From Pelagibius sp. CAU 1746 (GTDB taxonomy: Bacteria; Pseudomonadota; Alphaproteobacteria; Kiloniellales; Kiloniellaceae), in the NCBI RefSeq assembly GCF_039839785.1, contig NZ_JBDOQT010000001.1:1798001-1862000 (forward strand): a DNA stretch of 64,000 nucleotides. Direction: 5' to 3'. Of the stretch, positions 8,448 through 55,919 are shown piece by piece (position 1 is the first letter of the stretch; every line of letters starts with the position of its first letter). The translations under genes were made by a program, and so were the position numbers. Below the pieces are notes generated by a model. It was not told where the DNA came from. It saw nothing but the letters and a program-made list of their open reading frames with translations, and did no database searches.

Positions 8448-9049
8448 TCGGCAAGCTGACCGGCATCGTCGATTCCACAGGCGACGACTGGGCGATCCTC
8501 GATGTCGGCGGGGTCGGTTACCTGGTGTTCTGCTCCGGGCGCAGCCTGGGCCTGCTGCCGCCGCCTGGCGGCGCCGCGGCGCTGTGGATCGAGACCCACG
8601 TGCGCGAGGATCACATCCACCTCTACGGCTTCGCCGAGACCGCCGAGCGCGACTGGTTCCGCCTGCTGCACTCGGTGCAGGGCGTCGGCGCCAAGATGGC
8701 GCTGGCCGTGCTCTCGGTGCTGCCGCCCAACGAACTGGTGCGCGCCATCGCCGCTCAGGACAAGGCCTCCCTGACGCGCGCCAGCGGTGTCGGCCCCAAG
8801 CTCGCCGGGCGTATCGCCAGTGAATTGAAGGACAAGGCCGGCGGCATGGCCCTCGGGCCCGCCGAGGCGGTCAACGGCGCCGGGCCGGGCGGCGGCGAGG
8901 TGTCGGAGGACGCGGTCTCGGCGCTGGTAAACCTGGGTTACCGCCGGGCGGAGGCCTTCGCCGCGGTGGCCAAGGCCAGCGGTGATCTGGGCGCCAAGGC
9001 CTCGGTCGAATCGCTGATCAAGGCGGGCCTCAAGGAACTGGCGTCATGA
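8444..9049 (+). CDS. ruvA: Holliday junction DNA helicase subunit RuvA
   Basis: A 201-residue RuvA that binds the four-way junction as a tetramer and loads RuvB. Domain I begins [20 protein letters not shown]; the first helix-hairpin-helix [18 protein letters not shown] near residue 72 and the second [23 protein letters not shown] near 107 are clear; domain III (residues 150-200) binds RuvB. The start is TTG within the ruvC stop (TTGA overlap), and the stop shares ATGA with ruvB. The run of overlaps indicates translational coupling. Confidence 0.97.
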
Positions 9050-10116
9050 GCGACTTCAGCGCCCAGGACGACCGGGTGGTGGCGCCGGACTTCCGCGAGG
9101 AGGACAGCGGCGAGATCAGCCTGCGCCCTTCTCACCTGGACGACTTCATCGGCCAGCGCGCGGTGCGCGAAAACCTGCGCGTCTTCATCGAGGCGGCGCG
9201 CGGGCGCGGCGACGCCCTGGACCACGTGCTGTTCTTCGGCCCACCGGGCCTGGGCAAGACCACCCTGGCGCAGATCGTCGCCCGCGAGATGGGCGTCGGC
9301 TTCCGCGCCACCTCCGGCCCGGTCATCGCGCGGGCCGGCGACCTGGCGGCGATCCTGACCAACCTGCAGCCGCGCGACGTGCTGTTCATCGACGAGATCC
9401 ACCGCCTGTCCCCGGCGGTGGAGGAAGTGCTCTACCCGGCGATGGAGGACTTCCACCTGGACCTCATCATCGGCGAAGGGCCGGCGGCGCGCTCGGTGCG
9501 CATCGACCTGCCGCCCTTCACCTTGGTCGGCGCGACCACGCGCTCGGGCCTCATCACCACGCCTCTGAGGGAACGATTCGGCATCCCACTGCGTCTGCAG
9601 TTCTATGAGCCGGATGAACTGGAACTCATCGTCAGCCGCGGTGCGCGGGTGCTGGACATGAAGCTCACTTCCGAGGGCGCGGCGGAGATCGCGCGGCGTT
9701 CGCGCGGCACGCCGCGGGTCGCCGGTCGCCTGCTGCGCCGGGTGCGCGACTTCGCGGCGGTGGCCGGGGTCGAGGAAGTGGCGGCGGTGCAGGCCGACAG
9801 CGCCCTGAAGCGCATGGACGTGGACGAGCGCGGCCTGGACGCCATGGACCGGCGCTACATGCGCTGTATGGCCGACAACTACGGCGGCGGTCCGGTCGGG
9901 GTCGAGACCCTTGCGGCGGCGCTGTCCGAGCAGCGCGACGTGCTGGAAGAGGTCATCGAGCCTTACCTGATCCAGCAAGGTTTGGTGCAGCGCACCCCCC
10001 GCGGGCGGGTGCTGACCCGCGGCGGCTTCAGCTATCTGGGCCTGGACGTGCCGCGCAGCCTGGAACAGCTCGACTTCCTGGCTGAGGATTCGGGCAACGG
10101 GGGAGGCGCGGCTTGA
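9046..10116 (+). CDS. ruvB: Holliday junction DNA helicase RuvB
   Basis: A 356-residue AAA+ motor that drives branch migration with RuvA. Walker A GPPGLGKT is at residues 65-72, Walker [12 protein letters not shown] near 115, sensor 1 [11 protein letters not shown] near 165 and the Arg finger segment [12 protein letters not shown] just after. The C-terminal winged helix ([15 protein letters not shown] onward) is complete and the [14 protein letters not shown] end is typical. Start ATG overlaps the ruvA stop; its own stop overlaps the TTG of the thioesterase gene. Confidence 0.98.
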
Positions 10117-10574
10117 GCGACGTCGAAGGCCTCGGGCTGTCGGGCAGGGTGGTCGACGGAGAGCACCGCTATCCGCTGCGCATCTTCTACGAGGACACCG
10201 ATGCCGGCGGCATCGTTTACTACGCGCGCTATTTGCAGTTCGCGGAGCGGGCGCGGACCGAGATCCTCCGTCTCGCAGGCATCGAACAGTCGAAGCTGCG
10301 CGACAGCCACGACATCGTTTTCGCCGTGCACCGCTGCGAGGTCGACTACCGCCGCCCGGCGCGGCTCGACGACCTGGTGGAGGTGCGCTCGCGCCTGACC
10401 GAGCTGCGCGGCGCGCGGCTCAGCGCCGTGCAGAGCATCTGCCGGGCCGGCGAGGAACTGGTCCGCCTGGTGGTCGTCATCGCCTCGGTCGGCGGCGACG
10501 GCCGGCCGGCACGCATTCCGGCGCCCATCCGCGCCGCCTTGGAACCATTCGTACAGCCTTTGGAGCAGGGGTAA
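10113..10574 (+). CDS. ybgC: Tol-Pal associated acyl-CoA thioesterase YbgC
   Basis: A 153-residue hotdog-fold thioesterase of the YbgC type. The 4-hydroxybenzoyl-CoA thioesterase motif [25 protein letters not shown] (about residues 28-52) holds the catalytic Asp. The enzyme hydrolyses short acyl-CoA or acyl-ACP and is the standard first gene of the tol-pal cluster, where it is inner-membrane associated. Start is a TTG in a TTGA overlap with the ruvB stop, followed 3 bases after its own stop by tolQ. The first 20 residues are variable, so a slightly later start cannot be excluded. Confidence 0.95.
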
Positions 10575-10577
10575 CCC

Positions 10578-11306
10578 ATGGAACAGGACGCCGTAAATTC
10601 TCTTGTGCTCGAAGGTTCGGTCGACCCGAGCCTGTCGGTCTGGGGGCTTTTCCTGGAAGCCGACATCGTCGTGCAGATCGTCATGGTCCTGCTTCTGCTG
10701 GCGTCCTTCTGGTGCTGGGCGATCATCTTCGAGAAGGTGCTGCGGTTGCGCCGCCTGAAGGAGCGCGCCGGCCAGTTCGAGGAGGCCTTCTGGTCCGGCG
10801 GCTCGCTGGACGACCTCTACGACCGGCTGGACAACCGCCCGCCCGACCCCATGGCCTCGATCTTCGTCTCGGCCATGCGTGAGTGGCGGCGCTCCTCGGC
10901 GCGCGGCCTCGCCAACTCGGCGGAGATCAAGGCCAGCCTGCAGCAGCGCATCGAGCGGGTCATGGAGATCGCCATGGGGCGCGAGATGGACCGGCTGGAG
11001 CGCCACATGACCTTCCTGGCCTCGGTCGGTTCGGCGGCGCCCTTCATCGGCCTTTTCGGCACCGTCTGGGGCATCATGAACGCCTTCACCTCCATCGCCG
11101 CGGCCAAGAACACCAGCCTCGCCGTGGTGGCGCCGGGCATCGCCGAGGCGCTCTTCGCCACGGCGCTGGGCCTGGTCGCCGCCATTCCGGCGGTGATTGG
11201 CTACAACAAGCTGTCCAATGACCTGGGACGCTACGCCGGACGGCTGGAAGCCTTCGCCGGCGAGTTCGGCGCTATCCTGTCGCGCAAGCTGGACGAGAAG
11301 AACTGA
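10578..11306 (+). CDS. tolQ: Tol-Pal system proton channel protein TolQ
   Basis: A 242-residue inner-membrane protein, homologue of ExbB and MotA, that forms the proton channel with TolR and powers TolA during outer-membrane constriction. Three membrane segments are visible: residues about 30-52 ([21 protein letters not shown]), 150-172 ([24 protein letters not shown]) and 190-212 ([25 protein letters not shown]). The [10 protein letters not shown] block is diagnostic. It is 3 bases from ybgC and 3 from tolR, in one operon. Confidence 0.97.
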
Positions 11307-11309
11307 ACC

Positions 11310-11816
11310 ATGGCCGCGACACTCATATCGTCGGGCCGCCGCGGTGGCCGGAGCGCCCAGAAGCGCTATCGCCCCCTCAGCGAGATTAACGTGACGCCCT
11401 TCGTCGACGTCATGCTGGTGCTGCTCATCGTCTTCATGGTGACGGCGCCGCTGCTGACCGTCGGCGTGCCGGTCGATCTGCCGAAGACCCAGGCCCAGTC
11501 CATCGCCGATCCGGAAGAACCGCTCGTCATCTCCGTCAACGCGGAAGGAACGATCTATATCCAGGACACGGAGGTCGAGCTGAACAAGCTGGTGCCGCGC
11601 CTGCGCGCCATCACCGAGAGCAAGCCCGACACGCGCATCTTCGTGCGCGGCGACCGCGCCATCGCCTATGGCCGCATCATGCAGGTCATGGGCACGGTGA
11701 ACTCCGCCGGCTTCAAGCGGGTGGCGCTGATCGCCGAGCTGCCGAAGGGCGGCGAGGCGGCCGCCCCGGACGACGGCCAGCAGCCGGCCAGCCAGAAGCC
11801 GGCCGCGCCGCAGTAA
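11310..11816 (+). CDS. tolR: Tol-Pal system protein TolR
   Basis: A 168-residue TolR/ExbD protein. The single N-terminal membrane helix (about residues 30-52) includes INVTPFVDVMLVLLIVFMVTAPLL with the essential proton-carrying Asp of the FVDVML motif. The periplasmic domain follows, and the C-terminal 20 residues are Pro/Gln/Ala-rich. It partners TolQ to energise TolA. It is separated from tolA by 51 bases, which hold a ribosome site but no terminator. Confidence 0.96.
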   Translation: MAATLISSGRRGGRSAQKRYRPLSEINVTPFVDVMLVLLIVFMVTAPLLTVGVPVDLPKTQAQSIADPEEPLVISVNAEGTIYIQDTEVELNKLVPRLRAITESKPDTRIFVRGDRAIAYGRIMQVMGTVNSAGFKRVALIAELPKGGEAAAPDDGQQPASQKPAAPQ

Positions 11817-11867
11817 GCCCGCCGCCGGACGTCATTTCGAGCCGAGAGAGCATCGCTGAACGCCATC

Positions 11868-12809
11868 ATGGGTAAGGCCAGTTTCCTTTCCGCGCTTCTG
11901 CACCTGGGTGTCATCCTCGCCCTGGTGTTCGGCCTGCCCGTGCTGCGCGAGCCCATGGTCAACTTCGATACGCCGACGATGGAGATGGTGTTCGAGCCGG
12001 AGGCCAACACCGAAGCCCCGGCGCCCGAACCCGATCCCGAGCCGGAGCCGGTCAACGAGGCGCCGGAGAAGGCGCCCGAGCCCGAGCCGGAGATCGCCAA
12101 GGCGCCGCCGCCCGAGCCAGAACCCCTGCCGGAACCCGAGCCGGCCCCTGAGCCCGAACCGGAGCCCGAGCCGGCGCCCCTGCCCGAACCGGAACCCGAA
12201 CCGGAGCCGGAACCCGAGCCCGAGCCAGAGCCGGAACCCGAGCCTGAGCCCGAGCCGGAACCCGAACCGGAGCCGGAGGCCGAAGCGCCGCCGCCCAAGC
12301 CGAGGCCCAAGCCCAAGCCGCCGGTGCAGGTCGCCCAGCAGCCGGAGCCGGAGAAGAAGAAGGAAGAGCCCAAGCCGGAAGACCGGCTGACCTCGATCCT
12401 GAAGAATGTGGAGAAGCTGAAGGACAAGCCTTCCAGCCAACCGCAGCAGGCTGCGCGCGCGCCGGTTCAGGCGCCGACGCCCAGGATCTCCGCCGTGCAG
12501 CGCCAGCAGCTCGAGAACTCGGTGCAGAATCAGATCAAGCGCTGCTGGCGCATCGATGCCGGCGCGCGCAAGGCGGAGGATCTGATCGTCGAGGTTACGG
12601 TGAACCTGGCGCCGGATGGGCGGGTCATCGGTCAGCCGCGGGTGGTCGATACCGTGCGGATGAACCGCGATGCCTATTTCCGCAGTGCCGCCGAGAACGC
12701 CGTGCGGGCGATCCTCAAGTGCAGCCCCTTCCAGCTGCCCGTCGCCCAGTATTCCGAATGGAAGACGATGAACCTGACCTTCAACCCGAGAGAGATGCTT
12801 GGATCATGA
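11868..12809 (+). CDS. tolA: Tol-Pal/TonB-type energy transducer TolA
   Basis: A 313-residue TolA. It starts with a membrane anchor (residues about 4-25), followed by a long linker of Pro-Glu alternation (about residues 45-140) and a basic Lys/Pro stretch. The C-terminal domain (about 205-313) has [36 protein letters not shown] and [23 protein letters not shown], typical of alphaproteobacterial TolA. The Pro-Glu linker resembles TonB more than the Ala-rich helix of E. coli TolA, so it is probably stiff and extended across the periplasm. The stop overlaps tolB by four bases. Confidence 0.95.
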
Positions 12810-14194
12810 CGTCGATGCACCGCTTCAAGTCCCGTCCGACCGGGCGCACCAATCCAGCCAAGTTGCGGGTCTTCCTGTGCCTGGCTGCCGGCCTGCTGGC
12901 GGCCGCCGTGGCCGCGCCGGCGCGCGCCCAGCTCAACGTCGACATCGAAGAAGGCTTCGTAGAGCCCCTGCCGATCGCCATCACCGATCTCTTCGGCGAG
13001 GTCGGGGAGGAGGCCAAGCTGGGCGCCGACATCGCCTCCGTGGTCGCCGCGGACCTGGAGCGCAGCGGCCTGTTCCGGCCGGTCGAAAAGGGCGCCTTCA
13101 TCCAGGACTCCTCCAGTCTGCGCTACGGCCCGCGCTTCGGCGACTGGCGCCTGATCAACGCCCAGGCGCTGGTTAGCGGTGTCGTGCAGCTCCAGGCCGA
13201 TGGGCGCATGGTGGTGCAGTTCCGCCTCTGGGACACCTTCTCGGAGGTGCAGATGCGCGGCACCCAGTACACTACGCCGCCGGCCAACTGGCGCGGCATC
13301 GCCCACCGCATCGCCGACGAGATCTACCAGCGCCTGACCGGCGAGCGGGGCTACTTCAATACACAGATCGTTTATATCGCCGAGCAGGGACCGCAGAACC
13401 GGCGCATCAAGCGCCTGGCCATCATGGACCAGGACGGCGCCAATCACCGCTTCCTGACCAGCGGCAACGAACTGGTGCTGACCCCGCGCTTCTCGCCCTC
13501 CAGCCGCGAGATCACCTACATGGCCTATCAGTCCAACGGCAGGGCCGAGGTGCCGCGGGTCTATCTCTTCAACCTCAACACCGGCCAGCAGGAAGTGCTC
13601 GGCGACTTCCCGGGCATGACCTTCGCTCCGCGCTTTTCCAGCGAGGGCAATGCGGTCATCCTCTCCATGGCCAAGGACGGCAATTCGGAAATCTACACCG
13701 TCGATCTGCGCACCCGGCGCCAGACGCGGCTGACGAATCACCCGGCCATCGACACCTCGCCGTCGTTTTCCCCCGATTCGCGCGAAATTGTATTCAATTC
13801 CGACCGCGGCGGGCGGCCTCAGATCTATGTGATGAATAGTGATGGAAGCAATGTGCGACGAATCAGTCGTGGACAGGGGTACTACTACACCCCGGTATGG
13901 TCGCCGCGCGGAGATTTGATCGCTTTCACCCGTCAACATGCGGGGGAATTCTACATCGGCGTGATGCGTCCCGACGGCACCGGCGAACGGATGTTAGTGA
14001 GGGATTACAACGTGGAAGCCCCTACCTGGGCCCCCAACGGGCGGGTCCTGTCCTACTTCCGCTCCTCGCGCGCCGACTCGCGCGGGCAGATCAGTAGTAA
14101 GATCTTTACGATTGATCTTACAGGTTTCAACGAACGCGAGCTTGTGACGCCTCTGGACGCCTCAGACCCGGCGTGGTCCCCCTTGATTCAGTAG
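12806..14194 (+). CDS. tolB: Tol-Pal system beta-propeller protein TolB
   Basis: A 462-residue periplasmic protein that binds Pal and TolA. A signal peptide (about residues 1-42) ends at ARA-Q, followed by the N-terminal domain and a six-bladed propeller with repeated [20 protein letters not shown] and [11 protein letters not shown]-type TolB/PD40 motifs. The open frame reaches back to 12719, but the ATG at 12806 within the tolA stop (ATGA) gives the correct signal peptide. It follows the tol operon order exactly. Confidence 0.97.
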
Positions 14195-46940: not shown

Positions 46941-47016
46941 GTCCCCTTCGTCTAGTGGCCTAGGACGCCGCCCTCTCACGGCGGAAACAGGGGTTCGACT
47001 CCCCTAGGGGACGCCA
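46941..47016 (+). tRNA. tRNA-Glu (anticodon CTC)
   Basis: A 76-base tRNA. Acceptor stem GTCCCCT pairs with AGGGGAC; the anticodon stem CCGCC/GGCGG closes loop CTCTCAC with anticodon CTC (reads GAG); the T arm has AGGGG-TTCGACT-CCCCT; discriminator G and an encoded CCA end it at 47016. Its last 16 bases serve as the integration site of the element that follows. Confidence 0.97.
47001..47016. repeat. attL: 3' end of tRNA-Glu
   Basis: The 16-base sequence CCCCTAGGGGACGCCA, the end of the tRNA, is identical to 55904-55919. The integrase gene lies 91 bases away, pointing at this site, as is normal for tRNA-targeting islands. Confidence 0.9.
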
Positions 47017-47106
47017 TCCGCTTTCCGCGACATAGCCATTTCAACGGCTTAAATGCCGGAAAAGTCCCACCGGGCCGCACCCCCCTTCGAAGTGGGACTT
47101 TTTGAC

Positions 47107-48267
47107 TCACCCCGCGCCCCTGCGGTCCTTGGCGCTGCCAGTCGGCAGCAGCGTGATCGAGGCATCGCCGAAGCCTTCGGGCTTCAACAGGCGCATGGCA
47201 CGGCCCGCCAGGCGCCGGCGGTCGGCCTGGCGCGTGTAGCGCTCGGCTTCCTGGATGGAGCGCCAGCCGAAGATCGCCATCAGTTCGTGTGCCGAAGCGC
47301 CGGCGTCGGCCGCGATGGTCGCGCCGGCCTTGCGCAGGCCGTGCGGCGAGCAGTGCGGCAGGTCGGCCTGCTTGCACCAGTCGCGAAACTTGTTGCCGAA
47401 GCCGTTGCCGGTGAAGGGCTTGCCATAAGCCGTTGCCAGATACGTCATGTGACCTGAGGGGCAGGCTTCAATGGCGGCCTGCAGGTCCGGCAGCATGGGA
47501 ATCTCGCGTTGCTTGGCCAGGCGGGCGGCACCCTTGGTTTCCGTGAAGCGCAGCCACACGCCATCGCCTTCGCGCCGCTCCATCTGGCGGCCCAGGCGCA
47601 CCACGTCCGACCGGCGCACGCCCGTGAACAGCAGCAGTGCCAGCGCCAAGTAAGCCTGCGTTCCGATGGGATGCCGCGCGATGTATTGCTCGATTTCCCC
47701 GGTAGTCCAGGCGTGCCAGCCCTCACCATTGCCGGTGAATTTGGGCACGTCGCGCGCCGGGTTGCGCTCGGCTAGGTTCACGCTCGGATCACAGGCCCAG
47801 GCGAACAGCCGGCGCACCGTTTTGACCAGGCCGTTGGCCGCTTCGGGCGTTTCGGCCAGCTTGTCGCGCCAGGCGCGCACGTGGCGCGACTCCAGGGTGC
47901 GATAGGGCTTGGCACCGCGCGTCACGCCCTTCTGGTCGCGCACCGCGCAGCAGCGCTCCAGGATGCGTCTGCGCGTGCGCTGCGTGGAGCGTCCCAGGCG
48001 CTTGAATTCGGCAGAGGCGTACCAGCGCTGGCAAAGCCAGGCCAGCGAGCCGGGTGCGGCCGGCTGTCCGGGATCTTCGGATATCACCGGCTCCGCAGCC
48101 GGCGACTCCGCCGCTTCAACGGCCGCGTGGTACTCGGTCCAGAATTCTGGCGTGCCGACGTCCGCGCGGATGCGCACCTTGCGGCGCCCGGGCATCGCCA
48201 GGTAAGTGCGCAAGTTGCCGTGGCGGTCGACGTCTTGCTTGATGTACTTCACCCGAATCCTGGCCAT
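47107..48267 (-). CDS. Tyrosine-type site-specific integrase
   Basis: A 386-residue tyrosine recombinase. The catalytic set is present: Arg in TGVRRSDVVRLGRQ, Lys near KGAARLAKQREIP, His-x-x-Arg in HGLRKAGATIAADAG, a Trp in FGWRSIQEAERY with the nucleophile Tyr in ERYTRQADRRRL. The N-terminal arm and core-binding parts precede (from MARIRVKYIKQD). I chose the ATG at 48267 because AAGGGAGG lies 5 bases upstream; a GTG at 48300 would overlap the portal stop. It is only 19 bases after the portal gene and so may be transcribed with the head genes. Confidence 0.94.
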   Translation of the reverse strand: MARIRVKYIKQDVDRHGNLRTYLAMPGRRKVRIRADVGTPEFWTEYHAAVEAAESPAAEPVISEDPGQPAAPGSLAWLCQRWYASAEFKRLGRSTQRTRRRILERCCAVRDQKGVTRGAKPYRTLESRHVRAWRDKLAETPEAANGLVKTVRRLFAWACDPSVNLAERNPARDVPKFTGNGEGWHAWTTGEIEQYIARHPIGTQAYLALALLLFTGVRRSDVVRLGRQMERREGDGVWLRFTETKGAARLAKQREIPMLPDLQAAIEACPSGHMTYLATAYGKPFTGNGFGNKFRDWCKQADLPHCSPHGLRKAGATIAADAGASAHELMAIFGWRSIQEAERYTRQADRRRLAGRAMRLLKPEGFGDASITLLPTGSAKDRRGAG

Positions 48268-48286
48268 GCCAGCCTCCCTTGCCTGG

Positions 48287-49534
48287 TTAATCGACCTCAC
48301 GCGGTGGAGCTGGCGGCGCCGGCGGCGTTCCCAGCGGCGTGAAATTCAGCGGACGGATGTATTCGTCGCCGTTTTCGATTGGCGCTTCGCCTTCGCGGCG
48401 GCGGCAGTCGTTCGGCGACAATATCCCGGCCTCGCGGCCGATCTTGTAGGCTTCAAAGCGCGACTTCAGGTCGCCGCGCAACAGCGCGCCGAAGTCATGC
48501 CGGATGAAGTACGTGCGCCGTTCGGCCTCGCTCAACAGGTCGCGCTCCATCGCACCTTCGATCCGCGCGGCCAGTGGCTGCAAAGCGTTCTGCACCAGCT
48601 GGCGCGCTTCTTCGACTGCGCTGCCATAGGTCGGCCGGTCGCCGATGCCGACCACGGCCGGAGGCACTCCGAAGATGCGCGCGACGTCTTCAGCCGCCAA
48701 CTTGCGCGAGCCCAGTAGTTCCGAGTCCTTGGCGCTGAAAGACACCTTTTCGAATCTCACGCCAGCCTCCAGGAGCATCGCCGCGCCGGCGTTCTTGCTG
48801 GTAACCATGTCGGTCAGCAACTTCTGTAGCTCTTCGCGCTGGTTTGGCTTTAGGACCTTGTCGTACAAGAACACGCCACTTGGCCGCAGGCTGTTGGCCA
48901 TGATGTTGGCCTCGGTCTGCGCACCGGCTAGGGCGAGAGCCAGCGCGCCGCGTGCCGCGTGCAACGGCGAGCGACCTATGAAACCGTCATGGGAAGCCGC
49001 GCGCACGTGCAGGACTTCGCCCGCGCCCTCCAGGGCCACCTCGGGCGGCCTCTGCGGCTCCATGAAGCGATAGCGCAGACGCGCGCCGCGCAGCAGTTCC
49101 ACAGAGACGGCGCCGGGCGCCACGACACGAAACGCCGTGACGTTCCCGGTGCGATCGCGCGCCACGCGCGCATAGGCGTTGCCGGCCAGGTCCAGGGAGC
49201 GGCCGGCCAGTTCCCGCGCTTCGAAAGCCGTCTGGCGATCGTTGGGAGCGTCGCGCAGCAGCCAAAAGAGCGGGTGGTCTTCCGCGCGCTCCGCGCCGCC
49301 GTCCGGCGTACGTCGGAACAGCTCCAGCGGGACGCCCGCCAGCAGCTCGGAGCGCAGTCGCACGCAGGCGTTTGCGACCGACAAGTTGGACAGGACGGAA
49401 TCGGCCCCAACAGCGAGCTGGCGCCCCGGCCGGTCGAAGTCGACGAGGCGCGGATCGAAGTCAAAGCCGCCCGCGCGTTCCTCGATGGGCGGCGGCGGGT
49501 CGAAGACGTCGGCAAGGCGTCGAAGCAGTCCCAT
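48287..49534 (-). CDS. HK97-type phage portal protein
   Basis: A 415-residue portal, the dodecameric ring at one capsid vertex through which DNA enters. SVANACVRLRSELLAGVPLELFRR, HPLFWLLRDAPNDRQTAFEAREL, GNAYARVARDRTGNV and RIFGVPPAVVGIGDRPTYGSAVEEARQLV are typical of the HK97 family. The length is usual. The ATG at 49534 comes right after the protease stop. The frame is open further upstream but that region is the protease gene in another frame. Order protease then portal in this transcript is opposite to the usual. Confidence 0.93.
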   Translation of the reverse strand: MGLLRRLADVFDPPPPIEERAGGFDFDPRLVDFDRPGRQLAVGADSVLSNLSVANACVRLRSELLAGVPLELFRRTPDGGAERAEDHPLFWLLRDAPNDRQTAFEARELAGRSLDLAGNAYARVARDRTGNVTAFRVVAPGAVSVELLRGARLRYRFMEPQRPPEVALEGAGEVLHVRAASHDGFIGRSPLHAARGALALALAGAQTEANIMANSLRPSGVFLYDKVLKPNQREELQKLLTDMVTSKNAGAAMLLEAGVRFEKVSFSAKDSELLGSRKLAAEDVARIFGVPPAVVGIGDRPTYGSAVEEARQLVQNALQPLAARIEGAMERDLLSEAERRTYFIRHDFGALLRGDLKSRFEAYKIGREAGILSPNDCRRREGEAPIENGDEYIRPLNFTPLGTPPAPPAPPREVD

Positions 49535-49535
49535 G

Positions 49536-50078
49536 TCACATAAACTCCGCCTTGAGCCGCGCCAGCGTGCGCAGCACGTCGCCGCGATCCGCACCGCGTG
49601 AGCGGGCAGCAACGTCCGTGGTCGGGTAGGCCGGCCAGCTGTGCACGATGCTGATTTCGCGCAGGTCGATTTCGACCAGCTCCCGCGTGTGCCCCTGCCA
49701 CCGCTCACCGCCCTTCGGAATGATGAAGCCGAAAGACGCGCCGCCCAGGTCGCCGCGCTCTGCCAGGGCCAAGATATCACTCCCCAGGGACGTCTGCGGC
49801 AGGTCGATCTCGAACGACAGGCCGCGCGCGTCTTCCGCCAAGCGCAGCGTCCGCGACCGGGTGCGGGCCAGCAGCTGCTGCGGAGAGTGGTCAACCAGGG
49901 CCAAGATATCGGCGCCGCTGGCCAGTGCCTTCGCGAAGGCGCCGCGCCGGATGACCTCTCGCTTGCCGCCGATGTCGGCCGCCTGGTCGAACACCGCGGC
50001 GTGTCCAACCAGGCGGCGGCCCGCGACGCGCCATTCCAGCGCGCCGCGATGCTCCAGGTTTTGCGCTGCCGCCGTCAT
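49536..50078 (-). CDS. HK97-type prohead protease
   Basis: A 180-residue serine protease of the U35/S78 type that trims the capsid scaffold domain. GHAAVFDQAADIGGKREVIRRGAFAKAL is the family start, VDHSPQQLLARTRSRTLRL holds the catalytic His, and GDLGGASFGFIIPKGGERW the catalytic Ser; DLREISIVHSWPAYPTTDVAAR ends it. It is 2 bases after the capsid gene stop and 1 base before the portal ATG, so the three head genes are tightly linked. Confidence 0.93.
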   Translation of the reverse strand: MTAAAQNLEHRGALEWRVAGRRLVGHAAVFDQAADIGGKREVIRRGAFAKALASGADILALVDHSPQQLLARTRSRTLRLAEDARGLSFEIDLPQTSLGSDILALAERGDLGGASFGFIIPKGGERWQGHTRELVEIDLREISIVHSWPAYPTTDVAARSRGADRGDVLRTLARLKAEFM

Positions 50079-50080
50079 GC

Positions 50081-51358
50081 TTACGCCGCCGGAACGTCGA
50101 TGGCGCCGGCGAAGGACTCGACATGACGGAGAACCACGTCGGCCGTAAGCAAGCCACGCACCTGGATGTTGCCCTTGGCGTATGCCGTCGCCGCGTAGGG
50201 GTTGGCCAAGATGTCGATGCCGGTCCAGTAACCGACAACCAGGCTTGCCCAGTCACCGAATACAACGCTGCCGTTCTCCGGCGATTCATCCACTGGCAGT
50301 CCGGTGGTCGACATGGCCGGATAGCCCGCCAGCTCGCGGGGCGAGTCCATGATGAACCCTGCACCGGCGTCGGCGTTGACCTTCGTCGTGCCGCGCAGGG
50401 TCGCAACGGCGTTCGGGTTTACAGCCCAGCCGAGACGGCCCATCGCCGCATTTGCGACCTCGACTCCCTTCACGATGTTAAGCACTTCCTGCCAGGTCGG
50501 AGTCCCCAGCGTTCCCGGCGTAATCTGATCCAAGATGCCACTCGGTTCATTGGCGGCACCGCCTACCAGGGCGGCGCCGTCAAGCGCCACCGCCAGGGCG
50601 GCGGAGAAGTCGCGCCGCGCCATGTCTTCGACGTCCGGCGACGATTGCAGGACGAAGTTGCGGCTGAACTCGGTCAGACAGCCCACCGTCTTCGGGGTGA
50701 GCTGGCGCTTGTTGACGTCGACGTCTGCCGGCGTCAATGCGGAATCGTCGGCGATCCAGCTGCCCGACTGTCCGCTGTCCATCGCCGGCAGCGAAACAGG
50801 GCCACCCTCCAGGCCGTTTAGCACGGTGGCGCCAAGCGCCGACGTGACCAGGTTGGCGCGAAGCGCGTCAATGAACATGTCCGGCCGGCCGGACTCGAAG
50901 ATCGCGCCTGCGCCACCGCCAGCGGCCGTCGTGACACGGGTTTCGAGGCCGCGATGGGCGCGCACGTGCAGCACGTTGGCCGGGACCAGGACGCCTTGCG
51001 CTTTGCGGCCGGAGCGGCGGGCCAGCTCCGCGCTGACCTCGCGCTCGCGGCCGTAGTCGCCCTCCAGGCCCGCAGAACAGGCGATCGCGCGCAGCAGAGA
51101 AACCTGCGACGCCTCCCGCTCGAATTCACCACCCTGGCCGTCCAGCGGATCGCCCTCCGCCTGGCGGTCGAATTCGTCCATCATGGCCTGGTTGCGAATG
51201 CGGGTTTCCAGGGCGTCGCTTTCGGTCCTGATTTCATCCAGGCGCGTCTGTTCCTGGCCCTCGGGCGCGCGGTCGGCGTCCTCGGCAGTCTTGATGATCT
51301 TCTGCGCTTCGCGCCGGAGCGTGTCGCGCTGCTTCAACAGGTCACTGATTTTTGTCAT
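50081..51358 (-). CDS. HK97-type major capsid protein
   Basis: A 425-residue capsid protein. Residues about 1-100 are a charged coiled coil (LLKQRDTLRREAQKIIKTAED), the scaffold (delta) domain removed by the protease; the mature fold follows with ALGATVLNGLEGGPVSLPAMDSGQSGSWI, the spine helix and the C-terminal GDWASLVVGYWTGIDILANPY. This is the phage_capsid family also used by HK97. There is no packaging or decoration gene adjacent. The leader before the ATG contains an imperfect 30-base tandem duplication. Confidence 0.94.
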   Translation of the reverse strand: MTKISDLLKQRDTLRREAQKIIKTAEDADRAPEGQEQTRLDEIRTESDALETRIRNQAMMDEFDRQAEGDPLDGQGGEFEREASQVSLLRAIACSAGLEGDYGREREVSAELARRSGRKAQGVLVPANVLHVRAHRGLETRVTTAAGGGAGAIFESGRPDMFIDALRANLVTSALGATVLNGLEGGPVSLPAMDSGQSGSWIADDSALTPADVDVNKRQLTPKTVGCLTEFSRNFVLQSSPDVEDMARRDFSAALAVALDGAALVGGAANEPSGILDQITPGTLGTPTWQEVLNIVKGVEVANAAMGRLGWAVNPNAVATLRGTTKVNADAGAGFIMDSPRELAGYPAMSTTGLPVDESPENGSVVFGDWASLVVGYWTGIDILANPYAATAYAKGNIQVRGLLTADVVLRHVESFAGAIDVPAA

Positions 51359-51385
51359 TCGAGTTTCCTTCTAAGGGATAGCGCG

Positions 51386-51447
51386 CGTCATCACGACGGG
51401 CGTTGGTTGGGGCGTTCCATCTAAGGGAGCGGGCGTCATCACGACGG
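51386..51447. repeat. Direct repeat in the capsid gene leader
   Basis: CGTCATCACGACGG occurs at 51386-51399 and 51434-51447, and CTAAGGGA at 51371 and 51421, so a segment of roughly 30 bases is imperfectly duplicated 48-50 bases apart. It lies between the capsid gene and the upstream small gene, with no other feature. Confidence 0.6.
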
Positions 51448-51471
51448 CCGGCCAGCGCGCGCCCCGTCGCG

Positions 51472-51735
51472 CTAGTGTCTTGCTTGCGGGGGCGGGTTTT
51501 GCTCCAGGTGAATCAGCAGCTTCCCCAGCGCCCCCAGGTGGCAAGCCACGTGCTGCGCACCGTGCTGCGCGGTCATGGTCGCCAGCGCTTCGGAAAGCAG
51601 CGCCTCGGCAATATCGTTGTCGCTGAAGCCAACGCCCCGCAGCCGCTGGCGCAGCTCCTGGAGCGCGGCGGCGGCTTCCTGGACCTTCGGGTGATCGGGC
51701 GGCAGGAACTGTGCGTCAAACGTGGTCCCGGTCAT
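51472..51735 (-). CDS. Hypothetical 87-residue protein of the element
   Basis: A small soluble helical protein beginning MTGTTFDAQFLPPDHPKVQE, with a Gln/Ala-rich helix and a His-rich C-terminal half. I recognise no domain. It overlaps the MerR-like gene by four bases (coupled) and precedes the capsid gene by 113 bases. It may be a regulator partner or a head accessory factor; neither can be shown. Confidence 0.6.
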   Translation of the reverse strand: MTGTTFDAQFLPPDHPKVQEAAAALQELRQRLRGVGFSDNDIAEALLSEALATMTAQHGAQHVACHLGALGKLLIHLEQNPPPQARH

Positions 51736-52331
51736 TCGGCTTCGCCTTCTTCAACGTGAACAAACGGCCGGCGCGCCAGGTCAAGCAGCCTTCGGCCAAG
51801 CGCCCGCTGGTCCATCACGATGACAGCGCCCGCGCCCTTGCGTCGGCCGCCATCAATGTCGTCAAACCAAGCATCGACGGAGTCGACCCATCGGCGCTTG
51901 CCATCACCGGTCCAGACGAAGAAGCGCGCCGGCAGTACCTGTCCGGCGCCGCGCGGTCGGCTGCGTTCTTGCACGATCCACCTGGCCAGTACATCAAGCC
52001 GGTCCTGGACGTTATCGTCAGGGTGGGCACCGCGCAGCGCGGCGGCTTCGAAGTCGCCCTCGTAAGCCTGGCGATGCTGTAGCGCTTCATGGACGATTCC
52101 GGCCGCCAGCCAAGCGGCGGCCTTGCGACTTTGCTGTGGCCCGATGCCGCGCTCGGCCAAAAGCCTCAGCGCCCACATCTCCGCAAGGGCGAAGACGTCG
52201 AAACGCGCATGGCCGTCGTTTGAGGGGAGGAAGCCGCGTCGGCGCCAGTCGCGCTGCAGGGCCGTGGAAACGCCCGTGATGCCTTCGGCTTCGCCGGGCG
52301 TGAAGAGGGTCGGGGTGAAGGTCGTTTCCAT
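51732..52331 (-). CDS. MerR-like HTH regulator of the element
   Basis: A 199-residue protein with an N-terminal winged helix of the MerR type (TLFTPGEAEGITGVSTALQRDWRRRGFLPSNDGHARFDVFALAEMWALRLLAERG in sequence) and a longer unrecognised C-terminal part. It probably controls the leftward head operon and the divergent rightward genes. The ATG at 52331 is preferred; the open frame to 52433 codes a basic, unconvincing extension. A palindrome, CGTGGT/ACCACG, begins three bases upstream of its start codon. Confidence 0.75.
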   Translation of the reverse strand: METTFTPTLFTPGEAEGITGVSTALQRDWRRRGFLPSNDGHARFDVFALAEMWALRLLAERGIGPQQSRKAAAWLAAGIVHEALQHRQAYEGDFEAAALRGAHPDDNVQDRLDVLARWIVQERSRPRGAGQVLPARFFVWTGDGKRRWVDSVDAWFDDIDGGRRKGAGAVIVMDQRALGRRLLDLARRPFVHVEEGEAE

Positions 52332-52333
52332 AA

Positions 52334-52376
52334 CGTGGTCCGTACCACGGATTCGGCAACCGTGGCAAGGACCACG
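52334..52376. promoter_or_regulatory. Two CGTGG-type palindromes before the MerR-like gene
   Basis: CGTGGT (52334-52339) and ACCACG (52344-52349) form one inverted repeat with a 4-base spacer; CGTGG (52361-52365) and CCACG (52372-52376) a second with a 6-base spacer. They lie at the 5' end of the leftward operon and are good candidates for autoregulation by the MerR-like protein. Confidence 0.55.
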
Positions 52377-52476
52377 AATTGACGCGCTTGAGCCCGAAGC
52401 CCGGCGCCCAGGCCTGCCACGCGTTGCGCCCAATGTAACAGCGCAAACAGTAACTCGTCGTTATTTAGAGGGGTCC

Positions 52477-52493
52477 GTTACATCTGATGTAAC
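52477..52493. promoter_or_regulatory. Perfect 8-base palindrome GTTACATC/GATGTAAC
   Basis: GTTACATC (52477-52484), one spacer base, GATGTAAC (52486-52493). A related half-site TGTAACAG lies at 52434-52441 and its repeat at 52489-52496. The region lies between the divergent MerR-like gene and the rightward genes, so a second regulator may act here. Confidence 0.55.
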
Positions 52494-52586
52494 AGTGTAT
52501 TTTGTTGTTGAAAGTCTTTGAGACTGACAAGACGATTTGAAGGTCAGGCGCATTTTGCGACTGTTGAAACCACGGGAAGGCATGAA

Positions 52587-53099
52587 ATGACTATTGTAGA
52601 TGCAAGGGTGAATGACCTCCGCGACGCAGTTGATGTTATCGACGGCGACACCGGTTGCTTTGCTGCGACACTGCGCCTGGTGGCGCGCGGCAACAGCGCC
52701 AGGCGAGTCCAGTCTTGGCTTGATGACCTGGCGGAGAAAGCCTGCGACGTCGCCGATGCGATCGGCCAGGCCAACGTGGCGGCGTATCAGGGAGGCGGCG
52801 CGCCGGCGGCGATCGAAGGGCTGCAGCACTGTCGGCAGCAGCTCCAGAACCTAGCCGCAAGCCTCTCCGATCTGGCCGACGCTTGTAGCGAATCCGATTT
52901 CGACTGTCGCCACGCCGCATACTTCCTCAGCGACGGTGCGCGCAGCCTGGCGAACCGCGTCGACCAGACCGTTGACGCGTTTGAAGCGGACACCTCAGCG
53001 CCGGCCGGCAGCACCAGGCGCGATCGCCGCCGCATAGAGCGCGCCAGGTCGGCGCTGGCAGACCTGGACGCTATGTTGGCGGCCGCGCCGGTGGACTGA
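52587..53099 (+). CDS. Hypothetical helical protein of the element
   Basis: A 170-residue, mostly helical protein (MTIVDARVNDLRDAVDVIDG onward) with several Cys and no motif I recognise. The ATG at 52587 is preferred over 52518 because GGAAGG lies upstream and the first 23 residues of the longer version are basic and poor. It is the first rightward gene, divergent from the head operon, followed after 92 bases by the membrane protein gene. An early or accessory role is possible. Confidence 0.65.
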   Translation: MTIVDARVNDLRDAVDVIDGDTGCFAATLRLVARGNSARRVQSWLDDLAEKACDVADAIGQANVAAYQGGGAPAAIEGLQHCRQQLQNLAASLSDLADACSESDFDCRHAAYFLSDGARSLANRVDQTVDAFEADTSAPAGSTRRDRRRIERARSALADLDAMLAAAPVD

Positions 53100-53191
53100 A
53101 GCCTTAGCAGCTCTCTGAAGCCAAGCCCAGTCAATCAAGGACGGAATTATCCCCTAGACGGCAGCAGTCGCCTGGCGGCAGAATCGGGAGT

Positions 53192-53695
53192 ATGAAAAAT
53201 ATCTGGAAGTTTATCGGGTCTTTCTTTCGTTTTTTGGTCACGGTCAAGGGGGCGCTCTACCTAGTCGGCGTCGCCCCTGCCGTGATTTCGTTCTTTTCGG
53301 GGTGGTTGGACGGGCTGAGCACGTCGGCGATTGTTGCCTATTCGATGCTGGCGCTGGTATCCGGCCTAGCGGCGGTTTCTTTGGCGCTGTGGATTTACGA
53401 GCGCGCGACGCTGTTTCTTACCAGCCGTCGACAACAAGAGCGGATCATGCAGGGCTTGTTGACACTAGGCGAAGACGTGACAGAGCTTGATATTCCCACC
53501 GCGGCGGGGATCTGGGCCGGGACTTATTCGGCGGAGAGCGTAGAACGGCATCTCAATTTCCGAGGGCTGAAGTCCGCCGCCAGGCGTGGGCTCATCAAAA
53601 CGACGTATACGGAAGACGGCAAAGTCAATGTCCGCACCAAGCTTGACCTTGAAAGCCTCAAAGAATTCTGGCGCAAGAAGGGGGTAATTCGCTAG
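53192..53695 (+). CDS. Two-helix membrane protein of the element
   Basis: A 167-residue protein with a basic start, two hydrophobic segments (about residues 13-37 and 45-70) and a cytoplasmic C-terminal domain of about 90 residues (EDVTELDIPTAAGIWAGTYSAESVERHLNFRGLKSAARRGLIK). No family is recognised; it does not resemble a holin because of its large soluble domain. It converges with the HNH gene (90-base gap). As a membrane protein in a satellite it could serve in exclusion of other phages; this is speculation. Confidence 0.65.
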   Translation: MKNIWKFIGSFFRFLVTVKGALYLVGVAPAVISFFSGWLDGLSTSAIVAYSMLALVSGLAAVSLALWIYERATLFLTSRRQQERIMQGLLTLGEDVTELDIPTAAGIWAGTYSAESVERHLNFRGLKSAARRGLIKTTYTEDGKVNVRTKLDLESLKEFWRKKGVIR

Positions 53696-53784
53696 GCGCG
53701 TCTCAGGGACTCGTACAAAAAAAAATATTCTGAATTTCGCGGGCGGGAATTTTCTATTGGGGCGACGGTTCCCAGCGGGCGCCT

Positions 53785-54129
53785 TTAGCCTTTTTGACCC
53801 GCCCCCCGGGTCTGCTGCGCGCGGGTCTTTCGGGCGTGGCAGCTCTTGCACAGACTTTGATAGTTGTCCGGATCGCGCTGCAGCATCGGGTCGCCGTTGG
53901 GCACAACGATGTGGTCGACTTCGGTCGCCGGCACGGTGCGCCCGTCTTCGGCGCAGTGCCGACAGAACGGCTCACGTTGCAGCTGGATCGGCCGGAGGCG
54001 GTCACGCCATGCCCGCGTGCGCAAGAACGCCTGGTCGGGATGGTCGCGCCTGCGGCGCTTGTAGTCGGCGTCACGCTCGCGCTTGGTTGGCGCACCGGGC
54101 GGGCGCCAGGTCGGCGGCATCGTCGGCAT
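53785..54129 (-). CDS. HNH endonuclease
   Basis: A 114-residue HNH nuclease: CRHC and CKSCH form a zinc site around EVDHIVVPNGDP and the Asn of NYQSLCKSCHARKT. Phage HNH proteins of this size sit beside the terminase genes in HK97-like phages and are needed with them for DNA packaging. Here it is present without a large terminase. The Arg/Pro-rich N-terminus starts at ATG 54129, 3 bases after the upstream stop. Confidence 0.9.
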   Translation of the reverse strand: MPTMPPTWRPPGAPTKRERDADYKRRRRDHPDQAFLRTRAWRDRLRPIQLQREPFCRHCAEDGRTVPATEVDHIVVPNGDPMLQRDPDNYQSLCKSCHARKTRAQQTRGAGQKG

Positions 54130-54132
54130 GTG

Positions 54133-54378
54133 TCAGCTCGCCCGCCCGCGCAGATCGGCCTCTCGCTCGTCCAGCACCTGGCGGACTTCTGATAGCCACT
54201 CTGCGAAGTCCGCAGTGCTCATCTCCTCTTGGGCGATAAAGAGCGCGCCGCCCATCAGGCAGTGCGCCGCGTCGGCAGTGCCCAAGCCGATGCAGTCAGT
54301 CAGATGCTTCGAGGCATCCAAGACGGAGTCCATAGCCTCGTCGCCGTCGGGATCGTCGTGCTGCTGTTCGTCAGCCAT
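54133..54378 (-). CDS. Hypothetical 81-residue acidic protein
   Basis: A small acidic protein (MADEQQHDDPDGDEAMDSVL) with a mid-region containing Cys and Met residues and a helical C-terminus. No recognised family. It lies 3 bases before the HNH gene and probably shares its transcript. It may be a small terminase-like or regulatory factor, but this is not supported by a motif. Confidence 0.55.
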   Translation of the reverse strand: MADEQQHDDPDGDEAMDSVLDASKHLTDCIGLGTADAAHCLMGGALFIAQEEMSTADFAEWLSEVRQVLDEREADLRGRAS

Positions 54379-54466
54379 GTCATCACCCCCTTACGTGCGC
54401 AATTGGCGACAGGAAGGCCGCCGCCGGCGCGACGATAGGATCGAACGGCGAGACGTCGCAAGTGTT

Positions 54467-54777
54467 GCGCGGGTTGCGAGGGTCCGCGCGGGTCCGGCAG
54501 TTATCCTCGCAGCTTCCTACCTGTTGAATTTAAAAGGCTTTTTCCTTCTCTTGCGAGGGTGCGAGGGAAAACCCCCTATTGCGGAGATATTTCAATTCTC
54601 AATGCAACATGGATGCAACAAGCGTTGCGTCTGTGTTGCATACATGGATCGTATAGAAGCTGCAGTCAGAGAAACCCTCGCACCTTCGCAGCCGGTGCCT
54701 GCGTAGGCAAAAAATGCAGGTTATTTCCGCGACTTATGAGGTGGCGCGGGTTGCGAGGGTTGCCGCGCAACCCGCGC
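54467..54777. repeat. Iteron-like repeats and hairpin in the element
   Basis: A 17-base repeat GCGCGGGTTGCGAGGGT is exact at 54467-54483 and 54744-54760; the core TTGCGAGGGT also occurs at 54551-54560 and inverted, with one difference, at 54674-54683. ATGCAAC occurs at 54602, 54613 and inverted at 54635-54641. A 12-base perfect inverted repeat, 54744-54755 and 54766-54777, ends the set. In the 553-base non-coding gap 54379-54931, this looks like an origin or packaging/regulatory site. Confidence 0.7.
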
Positions 54778-54931
54778 ACCTCGACAGCGAAACGGCAGGG
54801 AAATGGTGAGGCGCGCGCAGCGACGCCGAGGGGCGGGTGTTGCACAGCTGGCAGGCGCGCCGCTGCGCACGCTGCGCTTGCCGAAGTGCGTCTAGACGCA
54901 CCGCGTCAGCGCGGACTAGTCGGGCGTGTTC

Positions 54932-55783
54932 CTAGGGGTTCGCCCAATCGACCTGGTCATATGATTCGGCCGCATATTCAAGAGCGGTCTTGCGCTGAAA
55001 CCTGGCCCGCCACTCTCGCGACCGTCGGCGCGCCTCTTCGCCGGCAGCTAACTGCTGGCGGATGATTTCCTCTTGCGCCAAAAACTGCCGGTACAGCTCA
55101 TCCAGCTTGCGCATTTCCTCTGCTTCCAGCCACTCTGCTTCAGCACGCCTCCACTCAGTGACTGCGCGCGCCGACCAGGCCGGGCGCCCATCGATCGCCA
55201 GGTCGGCGCCTGGAAACCGGCCGGCCTTCAGCCAGCGCCAAAGGGTGGTGCGATCGATACCGAGTTGCGCGCATATCTGAGCGCGGGTGAAGCCTTCGGG
55301 CCGCTCCCATGCGGAGAGCGCTTGCGTCGACCAGGCGGGGCGGCCGTTGACCACCATATCCGCATTTGGGAATCGGCCGGCCTTGATCCGGCGCCAAAGC
55401 GTGCTGCGATCGATGCCGAACCGTGCGCACAACTGCGCGCGCGACAGGGACTCTCCGACGCCGCCCCCCTCTTCTGGTTTGCGCGCCACCGCATCGCTGC
55501 CGCGCAGCTCGCGCGCCGGGCGCGTCGCCCCCGCGAGGGGGGCGCGGGGGGAGCGGGGACCGGGTGCGGCTGCGTCCGCGTGCGAACACGCTTGAACCGC
55601 CGGCTGCCGATGGTAGTCTGGCGCCCGCAGCTCGCCGGCTGCAGTATGTGATGCGCCGCCGCCCCGGTTCCCAGCCAGGGCGGCGGTTCGCGTTTCGCCA
55701 GGCGGCCGCGCAGTGCGCGGGATGATCGTGCGCACCTTCGGCGCCTGCGCCCTCAGACGTGCCAAGGTTAGTTGGGCAGTCAT
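54932..55783 (-). CDS. Protein with two tandem HTH units
   Basis: A protein of up to 283 residues. The first 110 are low-complexity Ala/Arg/Pro and may include non-coding sequence. Two similar units follow: SRAQLCARFGIDRSTLWRRIKAGRFPNAD and TRAQICAQLGIDRTTLWRWLKAGRFPGAD, each with NGRPAWS or DGRPAWS behind, and then an alpha-helical acidic tail. Each unit is an AlpA/MerR-like helix-turn-helix, so this is an internal duplication. In a head-encoding element it could recognise the DNA to be packaged (small terminase role) or regulate; neither is proved. Confidence 0.7.
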   Translation of the reverse strand: MTAQLTLARLRAQAPKVRTIIPRTARPPGETRTAALAGNRGGGASHTAAGELRAPDYHRQPAVQACSHADAAAPGPRSPRAPLAGATRPARELRGSDAVARKPEEGGGVGESLSRAQLCARFGIDRSTLWRRIKAGRFPNADMVVNGRPAWSTQALSAWERPEGFTRAQICAQLGIDRTTLWRWLKAGRFPGADLAIDGRPAWSARAVTEWRRAEAEWLEAEEMRKLDELYRQFLAQEEIIRQQLAAGEEARRRSREWRARFQRKTALEYAAESYDQVDWANP

Positions 55784-55903
55784 GCGGGCGCCTCCCCAAT
55801 CCGAGGCGGTGGGACTTTACGCATTAGAAAGCCATGAAACAGGATAGGAAGTTTCGCGGTCCCACCGCTTGTTAAGCGATTGATATGACTAAATCCGCAA
55901 GCC

Positions 55904-55919
55904 CCCCTAGGGGACGCCA
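55904..55919. repeat. attR: second copy of the tRNA end
   Basis: CCCCTAGGGGACGCCA, the same 16 bases as 47001-47016, without a tRNA body in front. It marks the right end of the element; the chromosomal sequence resumes after it and the first gene beyond is LysR. The 120 bases between the last element gene start and this copy hold no gene. Confidence 0.9.

What the first reader, a model, noticed from the sequence alone, without database searches (positions are those of the whole stretch)
47001..55919. Capsid-encoding integrated element without visible terminase, tail, lysis or replication genes
Between the tRNA-Glu end and its 16-base copy lie integrase, HK97-type portal, prohead protease, capsid, an HNH nuclease, a double-HTH protein and small unknown genes, about 8.9 kb in all. 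Sequence shows a self-made head and an integrase; established knowledge says capsid-forming PICIs make heads and borrow tails from a helper, and usually keep terminase genes. No large terminase is seen here, so the element would have to borrow the helper's packaging motor. That makes it a candidate new satellite type, or a reduced prophage.
Basis: partly seen in the sequence, partly recalled or inferred. Interest (0 to 1): 0.85.

Follow-up and report, generated by a model that had tools for sequence, protein, structure and literature searches.

The report
Capsid-making phage satellite lacking packaging motor
A small piece of integrated DNA carries the genes for its own virus head but not the motor that fills the head or the tail that delivers it, and several relatives show the same gap, so it probably borrows both from a visiting virus.

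Summary
Observation confirmed. An 8,903-bp element (47,017-55,919) sits at tRNA-Glu(CTC) between exact 16-bp repeats. It encodes an integrase, HK97-type capsid, protease, portal and HNH nuclease; no large terminase (TerL), tail, lysis or replication gene was found by Pfam, PHROGs, a family TerL profile or tblastn. It belongs to a large family of 9-11 kb tRNA-bounded elements, mostly alphaproteobacterial, with a shared order: HNH-TerL-...-capsid-protease-portal-integrase|tRNA. Of 56 att-bounded members, 47 have TerL and 9 lack it; on a head-gene tree 10 TerL-less members need 7 changes of state. Three TerL-less groups have two scored members each, this element with L276 among them. Head genes of the pair L071/L168 are under purifying selection. 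L043, L079 and a terminally redundant contig (L239) carry a small terminase without a large one. Best reading: a capsid-forming satellite that takes its packaging motor, neck and tail from a helper. It fails the published cf-PICI gene set (no TerL or connectors found), so it is a variant of that kind, not filed as a member. Decay is the main rival; mobility is untested.

The parts
46941..47016 (+). tRNA-Glu (CTC), integration site; its 3' end is one att repeat
   Evidence: ARAGORN
47001..47016 (.). att repeat copy 1 (16 bp)
55904..55919 (.). att repeat copy 2 (16 bp); element body 47017-55919
47107..48300 (-). tyrosine integrase, 397 aa, next to the tRNA; start overlaps portal end
   Evidence: PF00589 5.8e-14, phrog_1 1.4e-33
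48287..49534 (-). HK97-type portal, 415 aa
   Evidence: PF04860 1.5e-86, phrog_12 1.1e-93 (on the slightly longer frame to 49603); start placed
49536..50078 (-). S78 prohead protease, 180 aa
   Evidence: PF04586 4.2e-34, phrog_80 9.9e-44; 60/51/46% identical to three relatives
50081..51358 (-). HK97-type major capsid protein, 425 aa
   Evidence: PF05065 2.7e-24, phrog_617 2.6e-57
51472..51735 (-). 87-aa unknown protein upstream of the capsid gene; no BLAST relative in the 161 other loci then held
51732..52331 (-). MerR/excisionase-like HTH protein at a recurring place upstream of the capsid gene; likely regulator
   Evidence: profile matches in 51 of 285 loci, this one included; weak MerR matches
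52518..53099 (+). possible opposite-strand protein (ATG at about 52587); no family above cut-off
53192..53695 (+). 167-aa protein, hydrophobic N-terminal part (by eye), 56% G+C against 66% for the element; sits where relatives have TerL; cargo (inference)
53785..54129 (-). HNH nuclease, 114 aa, DH...N...CxxCH pattern present (motif recalled, read by eye)
   Evidence: PF01844 7.2e-9, phrog_144 3.7e-24
54133..54378 (-). 81-aa unknown protein
54932..55783 (-). 283-aa protein with two tandem HTH_17/AlpA-like domains (148-nt internal duplication, 72% identical); regulator/excisionase or small-terminase-like recognition protein
   Evidence: PF12728 3.1e-10, phrog_66 1.6e-12, phrog_57 TerS 1.8e-6; repeat; PADLOC mad1 2.2e-13; RppC match E 0.71, not significant

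Best explanation
A tRNA-integrated phage satellite of a capsid-forming lineage that has lost its large terminase. Shown: integrase, att repeats, open capsid, protease, portal and HNH genes, no TerL found. Inferred: on helper infection it excises by its integrase, is replicated by host or helper functions (no replication gene of its own was found), and builds its own protease-matured HK97-type head with its own portal. The helper's TerL docks on that portal and fills the head; the helper also supplies neck and tail proteins. Selectivity for satellite DNA would come from a recognition or cutting step kept by the satellite: here the HNH nuclease and perhaps the double-HTH protein, in some relatives a small terminase (TerS).
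For: Family and gene order. TerL-less state in 9 of 56 att-bounded elements; in the other 47 a TerL spanning most of the model lies inside the att interval. On a careful tree of capsid+protease+portal (89 chosen rows, 71 of known state, 10 TerL-less) 7 changes are needed, a value reached in 1 of 200 label shuffles, so the state clusters in lineages. The window element groups with L098, L177 and L276 (100/100); the two members of known state lack TerL. Head-gene dN/dS in the TerL-less pair L071/L168 is 0.25, 0.24 and 0.10 (NG86). TerS without TerL in L043 (PF03592 over cut-off, phrog_641 4.4e-29), its relative L079 and L239 (phrog_83 1.1e-13; PF05119 23.5 bits, under its cut-off of 24.7). L239 has an exact 127-bp terminal repeat, read as a circular or concatemeric form. 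HNH lies inside 46 of 47 TerL+ but 2 of 9 TerL-less att-bounded elements, so the two are usually dropped together. tblastn with 194 family TerLs finds none in the element.
Against: No excision, induction or particle data. No resident helper of matching type: the one phrog_2 terminase found in the host lies in what reads by eye as a podovirus-like prophage, and no family-type TerL was found in the genome. No head-tail connector, clear TerS or replication protein was identified in the element. It keeps an HNH with its pattern intact although most TerL-less relatives lost theirs, which could mean recent loss. Only two members of its clade are complete enough to score. L071/L168 head dN/dS is higher than in the one TerL+ pair measured at similar divergence, L249/L171 (0.10, 0.13, 0.07); L043/L079 capsid is 0.49 (protease 0.16, portal 0.19; synonymous sites near saturation).
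Confidence: 0.62

Rival explanations
1. A decaying satellite: a TerL-carrying ancestor lost TerL (and replication genes) through cargo insertion or deletion, and the element is stranded and no longer transmissible.
For: Opposite-strand cargo of lower G+C lies where relatives carry TerL; no clear TerS, connector or replication gene found; L042, whose capsid match starts late, suggests that truncated remnants exist in the family; L040 is TerL-less although its TerL+ relatives are 77-79% identical; no copy in the 7 other genomes of the genus, one of them 86% complete.
Against: Head genes, integrase and HNH are open frames and both att repeats are exact; the TerL-less state is shared with L276 at about 50% head-protein identity; purifying selection on head genes in the TerL-less pair L071/L168; recurrence in 9 of 56 att-bounded elements.
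Confidence: 0.25
2. The capsid genes do not make the element's own particle but interfere with a helper's head assembly, as a defence or size-redirection device.
For: PISP TG93 is reported with capsid protein E, protease, TerS and a MerR-like regulator and is interpreted that way (PMC13230959, passages seen).
Against: A capsid-protease-portal set is kept, and most of the family also carries HNH-TerL, which fits a head of its own; phage capsids are 27-33% identical in the 20 records listed of 57, so co-assembly is unlikely (inference).
Confidence: 0.07
3. A reduced full-length prophage or gene-transfer-agent remnant.
For: HK97-type head genes and an integrase at a tRNA.
Against: Shared satellite-like layout and length in the relatives; reversed head-gene order; only one PF05065 capsid found in the genome.
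Confidence: 0.04

Closest known systems
Capsid-forming PICI (cf-PICI; EcCIEDL933 type). Definition read in PMC10690885 and PMC13230959 passages; the original papers are not held
   Same: Own HK97-type capsid, protease and portal, HNH, integrase, no tail; capsid-protease-portal order as in the annotated 16.5-kb record LR881103, an induced prophage (its likeness to cf-PICIs is my reading, and it also has one gene annotated as tape measure)
   Different: No TerL, no TerS confidently found, no head-tail connectors or primase found; integrase follows the portal gene
Alphaproteobacterial TerL+ relatives (L010/L018 Kiloniellaceae MAG, L011/L036 Dongia MAG)
   Same: Same order and homologous capsid, protease, portal and HNH; integrase homologous in L011
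   Different: Carry HNH-TerL upstream of the capsid module
cf-PISP and PISP satellite-plasmids of Vibrio (PMC13230959, passages)
   Same: Capsid-encoding satellites; PISP is described with a small terminase and the passages name no large one, like relative L239
   Different: Episomal, Vibrio; PISP uses another capsid family and is read as capsid redirection
P4, SaPI and PICI satellites (PMC10690885 introduction passage)
   Same: Use the helper's terminase
   Different: They package into the helper's (resized) capsid; this element codes its own head

Membership tests
cf-PICI | major capsid protein, protease and portal encoded | tested here: met
cf-PICI | large terminase encoded | tested here: not met
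cf-PICI | small terminase encoded | tested here: inconclusive
   no TerS-specific hit; double-HTH protein matches phrog_57 TerS at 1.8e-6 but excisionase families better
cf-PICI | head-tail connectors encoded | tested here: not met
   no connector family hit in the proteins scanned; PHROGs does find one in relative L013 (phrog_40, 7.1e-13)
cf-PICI | HNH endonuclease | tested here: met
cf-PICI | integrase and att sites, no tail genes | tested here: met
cf-PICI | induced and transferred by a helper using its tails | not testable with these tools
   needs culture or reads
tRNA-bounded capsid-module family found here | capsid-protease-portal order beside a tRNA with a flanking direct repeat, about 9-11 kb | tested here: met
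   integrase between portal and tRNA in 40 of 56, here too
tRNA-bounded capsid-module family found here | HNH-TerL in the element | tested here: not met
   HNH present, TerL not found; TerL present in 47 of 56 att-bounded members
full-length HK97-type prophage | tail, lysis and terminase modules | tested here: not met
   8.9 kb between att sites

The most novel reading that the evidence does not exclude
Capsid-forming satellites have repeatedly (about seven times in this sample) outsourced the genome-packaging motor while keeping capsid, protease and portal, and some have persisted in that state. Their portals would then have to accept a foreign TerL, and specificity would rest on a satellite-coded small terminase, HNH or HTH adaptor: a packaging division of labour between P4/SaPI-like and cf-PICI satellites.
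Probability: 0.5. Interest if true: 0.75.

Novelty: new variant of a known kind. Interest (0 to 1): 0.6.

Why it matters
In the papers whose passages I saw, satellites either use the helper's head and motor, or bring both head and motor and take only the tail. A recurrent class that brings the head but not the motor would fill the gap, and makes a question testable: can a portal be filled by another phage's terminase, and what chooses the DNA? It also suggests that satellite searches that expect a terminase may overlook such elements (inference).

Tried and rejected
Remote TerL in the element: family HMM at --max, tblastn with 3 and then 194 TerLs, Pfam and PHROGs: nothing credible. In the other TerL-less loci the same tblastn gave two short weak hits, L043 (E 1e-4, 89 aa, over the protease/portal boundary) and L079 (E 7e-4, 39 aa, inside the primase), not counted as TerL. 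TerL elsewhere in the host genome: no family-type TerL; one phrog_2 TerL in a podovirus-like prophage (podovirus by eye), judged an unlikely partner. Tape-measure search of the host genome: one match under the family's cut-off. Double-HTH protein as TerS or RppC: suggestive only (phrog_57 1.8e-6; RppC E 0.71, not significant; excisionase families score better). MerR-like gene upstream of the capsid as TerS: profile finds MerR/excisionase-like hits only or unknowns. PADLOC: in the window only the double-HTH protein hit, mad1 2.2e-13, a 60-position model. Empty site in the genus: not found; in the nearest relative, G052, an ORF that reads by eye like a serine recombinase follows the tRNA and the right flank is on another contig. 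The single-protein genome-contig scan with the capsid found nothing; the double-HTH scan of viral contigs found nothing.

Rows dropped: L042 (16-bp repeat at 8694 just upstream of a capsid match that starts late) and L253 (same contig as L168) were removed from the 58 att-bounded rows, giving 56. L030 (TerL+, 17-bp repeat) fell out because its portal missed the cut-off; with it the count would be 48 of 57 with TerL. The 52 of the 56 that have a full head set are all under 97% alike; four were not compared. L001-L009 (short), L012 and L014-L016 (other head families), L010/L011 (same contigs as L018/L036) were left out of the profiling. Loci L331-L450 were read in the listing only, not profiled. 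The 89 tree rows were the TerL-less elements and selected relatives, their nearest neighbours and 25 random TerL+ loci, out of 216 non-redundant full sets, so the shuffle test is on a chosen sample. Gene calls in relatives come from a simple G+C-frame script.

Full report
What is there. Between the 16-bp repeats at 47,001-47,016 (3' end of tRNA-Glu CTC) and 55,904-55,919 lie 8.9 kb. Read from the far end towards the tRNA, on the minus strand: a protein with two AlpA/HTH_17 domains, an 81-aa ORF, an HNH nuclease, then two ORFs on the opposite strand, a MerR-like HTH protein, an 87-aa ORF, capsid, protease, portal and integrase. The order capsid-protease-portal is the reverse of the usual phage order (the usual order is recalled). 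No terminase, tail, lysis or replication family was credibly hit (the double-HTH protein has a weak TerS match), and neither a family TerL profile at full sensitivity nor 194 family TerL proteins by tblastn found one.

A widespread family. The protease, capsid and portal were used to fetch relatives: 80 loci from genome assemblies (best of 124) and 80 per scan from viral contigs (best of 376, 139 and 100; the scans overlap). After removing duplicates and off-family loci, 285 loci were profiled with HMMs built from the family; 275 had capsid and portal, of which 193 showed TerL-capsid-protease-portal and 67 capsid-protease-portal without TerL, the remaining 15 other arrangements. Of the 67 many are cut contigs, so they are not counted as TerL-less unless att-bounded or terminally redundant. 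In the first 162 loci, 65 had exactly HNH-TerL-capsid-protease-portal-integrase. Hosts of the 80 genome loci are mainly Alphaproteobacteria, with some Gamma-, Beta- and deltaproteobacterial records and one Clostridia MAG (titles). Elements bounded by a repeat (14-54 bp) of the adjacent tRNA number 56 after dropping two rows; they are 8.7-11.2 kb (TerL+ median 10.6) and use 14 kinds of tRNA.

TerL-less members recur. Nine of the 56 lack TerL: the window element, L022, L028, L040, L043, L071, L079, L168 and L276; in the other 47 the TerL lies inside the att interval. The large ORFs that were scanned match primases, replication initiators or an integrase, or nothing of known function; none matches a large terminase (not every ORF of these relatives was scanned). 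A tenth, contig L239, has a 127-bp exact terminal repeat (read as a circular or concatemeric molecule), a primase and a small terminase, but no TerL and no integrase by the family profile. Five TerL+ contigs also have exact terminal repeats of 24-127 bp. L043 and its relative L079 carry a small terminase without a large one. HNH is inside 46 of 47 TerL+ but only 2 of 9 TerL-less bounded elements; the window element is one of the two, and L022's HNH appears to lack catalytic residues (read by eye).

Inheritance. On the concatenated head-gene tree (89 rows, IQ-TREE careful) the window element groups with L098, L177 and L276 at 100/100; the two members whose state can be scored lack TerL. L071+L168 and L043+L079 are also fully supported TerL-less pairs. 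Ten TerL-less rows among 71 of known state need 7 changes; 1 of 200 shuffles did as well. The tree does not tell gain from loss; loss is inferred because TerL+ is the common state. Head genes of L071 and L168 have dN/dS of 0.25, 0.24 and 0.10 (NG86); for the TerL+ pair L249/L171 the values are 0.10, 0.13 and 0.07; L043/L079 give 0.49, 0.16 and 0.19. So heads stay under purifying selection without a motor, perhaps relaxed. For pairs involving the window element synonymous sites are too diverged for a firm estimate.

How it probably works. The element would excise, be replicated by others, assemble its own head and portal, and be filled by a helper's TerL; neck and tail would be the helper's. 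The step that picks satellite DNA is open: HNH and double-HTH protein here, TerS in L043, L079 and L239. No family-type TerL was found in the host; its one phrog_2 terminase is in a podovirus-like prophage. Absence of a resident helper is no objection: EcCIEDL933 was mobilised by phages not native to its strain (PMC11389934, passages).

Against this reading. There is no evidence of movement; no copy was found in the 7 other genomes of the genus, and in the closest relative the tRNA is followed by another insert. The place where relatives keep TerL is occupied by a lower-G+C opposite-strand gene, as expected both for cargo in a working satellite and for the start of decay.

Known kinds. The published cf-PICI gene set includes large and small terminases and connectors (PMC10690885, passages; PMC13230959, passages). 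TerL and connectors were tested and not found, so the element is not filed as a cf-PICI, though it works like one in making its head (inference). The ten paper searches listed no title or abstract start that reports capsid-forming satellites without TerL; I read passages of three papers only, and the library lacks the two main cf-PICI/SatelliteFinder papers, so no claim of priority is made. Whether these alphaproteobacterial elements were counted among published cf-PICIs is unknown to me.

Noticed in passing
L011:6655-7296 (TerL+ relative): A satellite-sized element carries one tail assembly gene (phrog_32, 4.9e-41) between portal and integrase although no tail operon was seen; it might alter the helper's tail tip.
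   Followed up: partly
L010:5911-6342 (TerL+ relative): A 143-aa protein resembling part of central tail fibre J (phrog_31, 6.1e-5) next to TerL in a satellite where no tail operon was seen.
   Followed up: partly
L237 (16.9 kb): Two head modules (portal at 309-1517; capsid, protease, portal at 9947-13055) with two different primases and no TerL hit: tandem or hybrid satellites.
   Followed up: partly
L239 (10,242 bp, 127-bp terminal repeat): Capsid, protease, portal, VapE-like primase and TerS but no TerL and no integrase by family profile: possibly a plasmid-like satellite.
   Followed up: partly
G000:C1 about 2,674,000-2,698,000 (L302, L303): Podovirus-like prophage in the host (by eye, with a phrog_2 TerL) holding six ORFs of 163-644 aa (one cut) that begin alike with MTDDAS or MIDDAS.
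   Followed up: no
L043:12410-13756: A 449-aa protein matching PADLOC candidate PDC-S59 (2.8e-64) carried by a TerL-less satellite: likely defence cargo.
   Followed up: no
L042 (Pinisolibacter aquiterrae), about 8,694-13,108: Capsid (match starts late), protease, portal and integrase only, about 4.4 kb next to tRNA-Leu: looks like a remnant of the family.
   Followed up: partly
window 55138-55441: 148-nt internal tandem duplication (72% identity) that made the double-HTH gene.
   Followed up: partly
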